In this document: piece by piece, positions 9,276 to 16,065 of the stretch
Layout: each line of letters starts with the position of its first letter
How positions within the stretch are numbered: position 1 is the stretch's first letter
Assembly (NCBI RefSeq): GCF_001578945.1
Contig: NZ_KQ969550.1
Location: 336,068 to 373,759, forward strand
Reading direction: 5' to 3'
From: Streptococcus oralis
GTDB lineage: Bacteria; Bacillota; Bacilli; Lactobacillales; Streptococcaceae
Length of the DNA: 37,692 nt
The notes under the pieces: generated by a model
Told to the model about the DNA's origin: nothing
Database searches by the model: none
What the model saw: only the letters and a program-made list of their open reading frames with translations
Translations under genes and position numbers: made by a program

Positions 9276-10468
<1,193 letters not shown>

Positions 10469-10469
<1 letters not shown>

Positions 10470-15115: not shown

Positions 15116-15163
15116 CTCAATGTTTTCATGCTATTGTTGGTTTCAACTCAGCCTATTTGAGCT

Positions 15164-15255
15164 GGAACGGGATGCTGTGTGAAAAAGATAAACTTCCTTG
15201 TATTCATCGAATACTGCGTTAGTTTCCTATTTTCACTTTGCATCCTTGCTGTTCC
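15164..15255 (-). ncRNA. Candidate structured RNA element, copy 1
   Basis: Nested pairings read on the minus strand: outer GGAAC/GTTCC and GGATGC/GCATCC; P1 GTGAAAA/TTTTCAC (ends 15179 and 15236); P2 AAACT/AGTTT; and a terminal hairpin GTATTC/GAATAC. It is nearly identical to copy 2. The terminal loop reads GAT here against GAC in copy 2. Direction is inferred from the flanking genes. Confidence 0.45.
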
Positions 15256-15346
15256 TAGCATCATATTTGAACTCGGGCTAAAAGCTTAAGTTAGCTGAGT
15301 TGAACTCAATTGAACTCGGGCTAAAGTTAATTAGCCGATTTGAGCC

Positions 15347-15438
15347 GGAACGGGATGCTGTGTGAAAAAGATAAACTTCCTTGTATTCGTCGAATACTGC
15401 GTCAGTTTCCTATTTTCACCTTGCATCCTTACCGTTCC
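15347..15438 (-). ncRNA. Candidate structured RNA element, copy 2
   Basis: Same architecture as copy 1, offset by exactly 183 bp. The outer stem is improved (GGAACGG/CCGTTCC). P1 ends at 15362 and 15419. The terminal hairpin is the perfect GTATTCG-A-CGAATAC. Confidence 0.45.
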
Positions 15439-15498
15439 TAGCATCATAACTGAACTTGGGCTAAAAGCTTAAGTTAGCTAAGTTGAACTCAAGCTAAA

Positions 15499-15570
15499 AG
15501 TCTGGAGAAAAAGATGAATCTCATTGGTTGCAATCGCAACCTACTTCGATTCCCTATTTTCTCTGGGACT
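15499..15570 (-). ncRNA. Candidate structured RNA element, divergent copy 3
   Basis: Begins 24 bp after the rpsG stop. The architecture matches copies 1-2 but the paired bases differ: P1 GAGAAAA/TTTTCTC instead of GTGAAAA/TTTTCAC, P2 GAATC/GATTC instead of AAACT/AGTTT, and a terminal stem GGTTGC/GCAACC instead of GTATTC/GAATAC. Unpaired or linking bases are retained (ATAGG, GA-G-A, AA-GA, ATCTTTTTC). An outer AGTC/GACT closes it. Compensatory change in three helices suggests selection on RNA structure. Confidence 0.5.
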
Positions 15571-15594
15571 TTCTTAACGCTTTCGTATCCTATC

Positions 15595-16065
15595 TTACCA
15601 ACGGAAGTGTGCGAAGGCACGGTTAGCTTCAGCCATACGGTGAGTGTCTTCACGTTTCTTAACAGCTGCACCAGTGTTGTTCGCAGCATCCAAGATTTCT
15701 TTTGCAAGACGGTCTTGCATTGTGTGTTCACCGCGAAGGCGAGCGATGGTTACCAACCAACGAAGTCCAAGTGTTGTACGACGTTCTGGGCGAACTTCAA
15801 CTGGGACTTGGTAGTTAGATCCACCAACACGACGTGCACGTACTTCAAGTACAGGCATGATGTTTTCCATAGCTGTTTCAAATACTTCAAGTGCATCGTT
15901 ACCAGTAGCTTCTTTGATTTGCTCAAAAGCACCGTAAACGATTGAAGCAGCTGTACCACGTTTACCATCAAGCATAACGCGGTTGATAAGACGAGTAACT
16001 AGTTGTGAATTGTAAAGCGGATCTGGTAATACTTCACGCTTTGGAGCTCTATTTTTACGACTCAT
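15595..16065 (-). CDS. rpsG: 30S ribosomal protein S7
   Basis: This 156-residue primary 16S rRNA-binding protein nucleates assembly of the 30S head. It starts [18 protein letters not shown] and contains the RNA-binding [22 protein letters not shown] segment (about residues 76-97) and the C-terminal [10 protein letters not shown]. The length is standard for Gram-positive S7. It lies 19 bp downstream of rpsL with a GGGGA ribosome site. It is followed by the repeat-rich spacer and not directly by fusA. Confidence 0.98.

What the first reader, a model, noticed from the sequence alone, without database searches (positions are those of the whole stretch)
15164..15570. Three hairpin elements with apparent covariation between rpsG and fusA: candidate new structured RNA family
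Two near-identical copies (15164-15255, 15347-15438) and one divergent copy (15499-15570) share a nested architecture. On the minus strand P1 is GTGAAAA/TTTTCAC in copies 1-2 but GAGAAAA/TTTTCTC in copy 3. P2 is AAACT/AGTTT against GAATC/GATTC. The terminal stem is GTATTC/GAATAC against GGTTGC/GCAACC. Between the stems, short unpaired segments (ATAGG, GA-G-A, AA-GA, ATCTTTTTC) are kept. Paired bases change together while linkers stay, which is the signature of selection on RNA structure and not a simple DNA repeat. The elements lie between the S7 and EF-G genes, so they could be regulatory leaders, processing sites or mobile RNA-like repeats.
Basis: seen in the sequence. Interest (0 to 1): 0.75.

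Follow-up and report, generated by a model that had tools for sequence, protein, structure and literature searches.

The report
Mobile hairpin repeats hugging streptococcal genes
The three hairpins belong to a family of about 110-base folded DNA repeats scattered through nearly all streptococci sampled and some relatives; they sit tightly against gene edges, and in many basic genes they lie between the ribosome-binding signal and the start codon, where folding should keep the two close together.

Summary
The three hairpins are full copies of a dispersed family of about 111 nt (GATAC...GTTC, ends paired): 16 copies in this genome, 17 to 36 in ten complete relatives, 100 of 395 sampled genomes of the order, 0 of 297 other genomes sampled in the phylum. 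Rfam has no match. Covariation is strong: 24 of 33 pairs change on both sides.

It is not simply an RNA family. Copies occur in both orientations, wobble pairs do not follow the host transcript, and one copy is an insertion in Streptococcus prophages with empty sites in relatives. I read it as a non-autonomous, structure-dependent mobile DNA repeat; the enzyme is unknown.

Unusual: the GATAC end faces the nearest gene, 60 of 160 flanks within 12 nt against 0 of 136 for the other end. In 11 gene families it lies between Shine-Dalgarno and ATG. For dnaJ, 28 of 30 loci have it and none of these has a nearer Shine-Dalgarno; both loci without it do.

The parts
15155..15264 (-). element copy 1 (GATGC...GCTC type)
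   Evidence: end pairs
15338..15447 (-). element copy 2, 93% identical to copy 1 over a 160-nt repeat
15481..15591 (-). element copy 3, divergent type; its GATAC starts 5 nt after the rpsG stop codon
15267..15282 (-). stray TTCAA-side end of an element (remnant TTTAGCCCGAGTTCAA)
15310..15325 (-). second stray TTCAA-side end (remnant)
15450..15465 (-). third stray TTCAA-side end (remnant)
15595..16065 (-). rpsG (ribosomal protein S7), upstream gene
   Evidence: Pfam PF00177
12949..15030 (-). fusA (elongation factor G), downstream gene
   Evidence: Pfam GTP_EFTU, EFG_IV and EFG_C

Best explanation
The hairpins are copies of a non-coding, non-autonomous mobile DNA repeat of about 111 bp whose substrate is the folded single strand. 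What is kept is a rod of stems with free sequence but strict pairing, plus fixed unpaired or odd positions (a bulged T in GA-T-AC, a bulged AA after GTTC, the TAGG/ATCT internal loop). Shown: the family, the pairing, the dispersal, both orientations, one insertion with empty sites, and the polarity (GATAC end towards the nearest gene). Inferred: an enzyme acting in trans recognises the folded form and inserts it beside genes. Copies are tolerated inside operons, and even between Shine-Dalgarno and start codon, because the transcribed rod folds and leaves the flanking signals close together. At rpsG-fusA successive insertions or exchanges left three full copies and at least three truncated TTCAA-side ends.
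For: Dispersal; specificity: 0 of 297 genomes outside the genus in the phylum sample. Pairing: (88.1% of cells paired against 74.9% shuffled; covariation score 0.382 against 0.137; best slid version 0.158); an added end pair, -1 with +3, is Watson-Crick in 87 of 92 (expected 50) with AT, TA, GC and CG all present. DNA level: both orientations; in antisense copies, where an RNA constraint predicts more A-C than G-U on the GATAC strand, the counts are 36 A-C to 56 G-U over all tested columns, and 25 to 25 without three problem columns; tRNA stems of the same loci give 52 G-U to 11 A-C. Insertion: Javan3 and Javan93 carry a stretch just upstream of the tape-measure gene that 5 aligned related phages lack (112 nt against Javan25). 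Polarity: 60 of 160 GATAC-side flanks within 12 nt of an ORF edge against 0 of 136 on the other side.
Against: No autonomous partner or transposase was found: in ten fetched partial matches the halves lie at most 139 nt apart, or only a decayed half was seen. No consistent target-site duplication. No clear replication-strand bias (64 against 75 clusters, p 0.40; 73 against 100 single copies, p 0.048). On the GATAC strand G-U exceeds A-C overall (100 to 66; column 18-96 alone 29 to 2) whatever the orientation, and an invariant G-U pair (37-78) was left out of that count: one strand of the element may matter, as DNA or as its own RNA. The site beside dnaJ (28 of 30 loci) and beside rpsG (26 of 30) is kept across the genus, which also fits a host function. 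Equal mismatch counts could partly reflect decay of old copies.
Confidence: 0.6

Rival explanations
1. A cis-acting regulatory RNA family: the transcribed hairpin binds a ligand, protein or ribosome and controls the adjacent ribosomal, chaperone and biosynthetic genes.
For: Strong covariation; retained beside dnaJ in 28 of 30 loci and just after rpsG in 26 of 30 loci; invariant internal loops; initiating-ribosome peaks in matching D39 stretches.
Against: Both orientations; wobble pairs do not follow the host transcript; unrelated element types occupy the same site in close species; no shared function seen among host genes; phage insertion.
Confidence: 0.2
2. Mobile repeats later co-opted as intra-operon RNase III or stability sites, explaining their abundance inside ribosomal protein operons, an rRNA spacer and next to tRNA genes.
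For: Positions inside rpsJ-rplC, rpsN-rpsH, rpsG-fusA and upstream of pnp, between 16S and 23S rRNA genes (L022, L026) and after a tRNA gene (L010); long duplex.
Against: Nothing here tests cleavage; both orientations.
Confidence: 0.3
3. It is a branch of an already described repeat: enterococcal EFAR/Efa-1 or the BOX-like RepSU1 of S. suis.
For: Relatives in Enterococcus share the TAGG/ATC core (weak by profile, best E 1.6e-6); Efa-1 is an intergenic structured repeat of E. faecalis; BOX holds similar words (TAGGAA, GCCGCAG).
Confidence: 0.25

Closest known systems
BOX, RUP and SPRITE repeats of S. pneumoniae
   Same: Short, mostly non-coding, intergenic, dispersed, strongly folded repeats in streptococci, regarded as parasitic (PMC3049150, parts 1-3 of 6 read)
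   Different: Different sequence and end structure; those are nearly confined to S. pneumoniae and S. mitis (BOX-like also in S. suis), this family is in at least 68 same-genus genomes of the sample (my count); gene-facing polarity
EFAR / Efa-1 of Enterococcus faecalis
   Same: Small structured intergenic repeat; EFAR is counted among MITEs (passages of PMC2267715 and PMC3733652); that Efa-1 is EFAR, and that EFAR inserts into stem-loops, is recalled
   Different: 163 bp, two adjacent stem-loops; sequence not compared
Split ribosome-binding sites of phage T4 genes 38 and 25
   Same: RNA structure between Shine-Dalgarno and AUG shortens the effective spacing (passage of PMC3014915)
   Different: There 22-27 nt and single phage genes; here about 105 nt, a dispersed family and cellular housekeeping genes
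attC sites of integrons (recalled)
   Same: Folded single strand with free but paired stems and fixed extrahelical bases; arrays
   Different: End motifs differ as far as I recall; no integrase or cassettes were looked for

Membership tests
Rfam families (release 15) | score at or above a family's gathering threshold | tested here: not met
   no match over an element in the window, in 20 loci with copies, or in 8 further loci; one search shows only two weak matches below threshold
BOX | boxA-boxC ends ATACTC...GAGTAT | tested here: not met
   one search shows BOX copies (probes recalled), one in this window at 10365-10469; model R1 does not match it at E 5
BOX / RUP / SPRITE | near confinement to S. 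pneumoniae and S. mitis | tested here: not met
   against PMC3049150
RUP | IS630-like terminal repeats (PMC3049150); TA duplication (recalled) | tested here: inconclusive
   no consistent duplication; ends not compared with IS630 or RUP
EFAR / Efa-1 | sequence model of the E. faecalis repeat | not testable with these tools
   a DOI recalled for the EFAR paper is not held; text searches gave no paper with its sequence
MITE | short non-coding insertion with an empty site | tested here: met
   phage comparison; one site only
MITE | terminal inverted repeats shared with an active transposon, and target duplication | tested here: not met
   no partner found in ten fetched stretches, no consistent duplication; a 2-4 nt duplication is possible at the phage site
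cis-regulatory RNA | one strand functional, constant orientation to the gene | tested here: not met
   (inference from orientation and mismatch counts)

The most novel reading that the evidence does not exclude
A genus-wide family of mobile hairpins is adapted to gene edges, including the gap between Shine-Dalgarno and start codon. In at least 11 gene families (dnaJ in 28 of 30 loci) the ribosome must initiate across a folded insert of about 105 nt, so translation of core genes depends on a transposable hairpin staying folded; swapping or melting the hairpin would tune the gene.
Probability: 0.4. Interest if true: 0.82.

Novelty: new variant of a known kind. Interest (0 to 1): 0.6.

Why it matters
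Bacterial small repeats are usually treated as inert clutter. This family combines strong compensatory evolution with DNA-level mobility, is anchored to gene edges with fixed polarity, and splits the ribosome-binding sites of conserved genes. It gives a natural, many-gene test of whether bacterial ribosomes initiate across a folded spacer, known so far (in the passage I read) for two T4 genes, and it warns that covariation alone does not prove an RNA gene.

Tried and rejected

Replication-strand insertion as the cause of orientation: 64 against 75 clusters, 73 against 100 single copies in nine genomes. Classic target duplication: not found. Autonomous partner among ten partial matches: not found. 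Plasmid copies by distant blastn: none for one Streptococcus and one Enterococcus query. Two further element types in phages: none. Viral contigs: 22 and 12 stretches by two patterns; a profile search of them gave 15 matches, 10 of them the same tape-measure insertion. Folded Shine-Dalgarno to AUG path: median 10 steps against 18 in shuffled spacers and 128.5 nt linear in 42 cases; only 19 of the 42 have at most 4 of 40 shuffles as short, so this supports proximity moderately. Literature: 10 searches; the only streptococcal paper found by element sequence was PMC9426450, which lists three matching stretches as small ORFs.

Weak points of my counts. Alignment A2: 54 of 79 candidate copies chosen by hand plus four more; 25 left out, six of them long forms of 116-119 nt, so pairing figures may lean high. 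Wobble count: copies over 88% identical dropped; the terminal hairpin and the invariant G-U pair 37-78 left out; with all other columns G-U to A-C is 33:18 sense, 56:36 antisense, 11:12 ambiguous, and without columns 18-96, 42-73 and 43-72 it is 10:8, 25:25 and 2:9. Gene calls outside the genes are an ORF heuristic (at least 80 codons, alternative starts), so some start distances are spurious (antisense GTG/TTG frames over rpsG), and one search has overlapping (negative) distances on both sides that are in the totals but not in the 'within 12 nt' class. Sites in related species are not independent. Loci were selected by the TAGG/ATC core, so invariance of that core is partly by selection; loci were not. 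In one search the terminal hairpin pairs only 38.3% because of alignment register, and one of five measures was reached by 32 of 500 shuffles. The tRNA control has 79 'other' cells, so its register is imperfect. Profile matches in Enterococcus and Lactococcus loci are weak, and some pattern hits there (L059, L087) were missed by the profile. The output was cut.

Full report
What is there. On the minus strand between rpsG and fusA (Pfam) lie three hairpins. A covariance model built from 58 copies, these three included, finds exactly these three in the window. Of 92 non-redundant copies, GATGC goes with GCTC in 4 of 4 and GATAT with ATTC in 8 of 10. A further end pair (-1 with +3) is Watson-Crick in 87 of 92 (expected 50), outside a bulged AA; of the offsets I tried, nothing further out pairs above chance. 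The unit is about 111 nt.

A dispersed family. The own genome has 16 copies, in or beside rpsG-fusA, rpsJ-rplC, rpsN-rpsH, and upstream of pnp, carB, deoD, dnaJ and other genes (family matches, and for deoD and dnaJ in related loci). Ten complete relatives hold 17 to 36 copies each. In 395 genomes of the order 100 have it at E 1e-4; by my count of that table 68 same-genus genomes have it and three are listed without it; the list of negatives is cut. In 299 genomes of the phylum only the 2 of the same genus match, 0 of 297 others. Named hits include many Streptococcus species, several Enterococcus and Lactococcus laudensis (80 of 118 stretches listed, scan stopped at its limit); the Enterococcus and Lactococcus ones are weak by profile, and four MAG hits (L070, L077, L078, L089) have no profile match. 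Rfam has no match over an element.

Covariation. With 58 sequences and 33 pairs, 24 pairs change on both sides, 88.1% of cells pair (shuffled 74.9%), and the covariation score is 0.382 against 0.137 shuffled and at most 0.158 when slid. Six pairs of the long helix never vary, including a G-U pair in the TAGG/ATCT region. The rows were chosen by hand, 54 of 79 candidates plus four.

RNA or DNA? Among 252 distinct copies, 126 lie antisense and 60 sense between co-directional genes, 14 between convergent and 14 between divergent genes, 8 inside short ORFs, and 30 at locus ends. If the transcribed strand were selected, sense copies should show G-U over A-C on the GATAC strand and antisense copies A-C over G-U. 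Antisense copies show 56 G-U to 36 A-C over the tested columns, and 25 to 25 without three problem columns (sense 33:18 and 10:8, ambiguous 11:12 and 2:9); tRNA stems in the same loci give 52 to 11. So the host transcript does not set the pattern. Column 18-96 (29 G-U to 2 A-C in all orientations) and the invariant G-U pair 37-78, left out of the count, hint that the GATAC strand itself is special, which would suit a single-stranded DNA substrate. In Streptococcus prophages Javan3 and Javan93 a copy sits just upstream of the tape-measure gene; related phages have the same region without it. Of 129 records matching the flanks, 11 are known to carry it. Of the 40 listed, 29 match in two pieces without that part; 89 were not listed. 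I aligned five without it. The filled region of Javan3 is 112 nt longer than that of Javan25, with a possible 2-4 nt duplication. So this is a DNA insertion. Replication-strand bias is not clear (64 against 75 clusters, 73 against 100 copies, nine genomes).

Gene-edge polarity. On the GATAC side, 60 of 160 flanks lie within 12 nt of an ORF edge; on the other side 0 of 136. In sense copies GATAC typically starts 0 or 4-6 nt after a stop codon. The types differ strongly among species whose rpsG is 97-99% identical to the window's, and truncated TTCAA-side ends lie further down. In antisense copies the GATAC end faces the start of the gene.

Split ribosome-binding sites. In 11 gene families (uvrA, dnaJ, parC, carA, carB, rnr, hisS, prmA, deoD, PDH E2, purE) the element ends 2-8 nt before the ATG with no Shine-Dalgarno in between, and an AAAGGA-, AAAGGG- or AGAGGA-type sequence lies on the far side. 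dnaJ was tested in 30 loci, the best matches among 59 genomes that all have the gene. Of these, 28 have the element with its GATAC end a few nt from the ATG; 0 of the 28 have a Shine-Dalgarno-like motif in the last 20 nt and 28 of 28 have GAAAGG or AAAGGA upstream of the element. The 2 loci without the element both have a nearby Shine-Dalgarno-like AAGG. Predicted folding brings the two signals to a median of 10 graph steps (linear 128.5; shuffled spacers 18; 42 cases); in 19 of 42 at most 4 of 40 shuffles are as short. T4 genes 38 and 25 are the precedent (passage read, PMC3014915).

Transcription. In S. pneumoniae D39, initiating-ribosome peaks were reported for small ORFs rio26, rio27 and rio28 (PMC9426450, part 1 of 3 of section 6 read). 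By eye their sequences match this family's rpsN-rpsH (rio26, rio27) and rpsG-fusA (rio28) copies; the gene assignment is my inference. 'BOX element' and 'intergenic repeat' do not occur in that paper's main text.

Verdict. A family of structured mobile repeats absent from Rfam, related in kind to BOX, RUP and EFAR, with unusual polarity and placement. I found no description of it in the papers searched, but EFAR and RepSU1 could not be compared. Mobility is shown at one site; the enzyme, the exact target and any host function are not.

Noticed in passing
window 10365-10469: A BOX-type repeat (ATACTC...GAGTAT, short form) lies at the ilvC side of the ilv genes; the neighbouring ORF call (9276-10382, TTG start) overlaps it.
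   Followed up: partly
L224-L227, L290-L292: A second module of about 50 nt (TACCTAAAGGTAGCC...TAAAGC...) sits at the same point (TTTA|TCT) of several elements with different stems, making a branched variant.
   Followed up: partly
L022, L026; G014 and G023: Copies lie between 16S and 23S rRNA genes in L022 and L026; sets of four equal-scoring copies in G014 and G023 suggest the same there, untested.
   Followed up: no
L010; L017, L031, L130, L306: In L010 a copy starts 8 nt after a tRNA gene; the others look alike by eye.
   Followed up: no
dnaJ leaders L258-L287: A small GTTC...GAAC hairpin between Shine-Dalgarno and element shares GAAC with the main stem in several leaders: mutually exclusive structures, a possible switch.
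   Followed up: partly
G366 (same order, other family): One match at E 1.1e-19, far better than other non-genus hits: transfer or contamination.
   Followed up: no
L218: The rpsG-fusA gap holds a mini-hairpin GATACTACGAGCTTTTAGCCCGAGTATC, apparently an internally deleted element.
   Followed up: no
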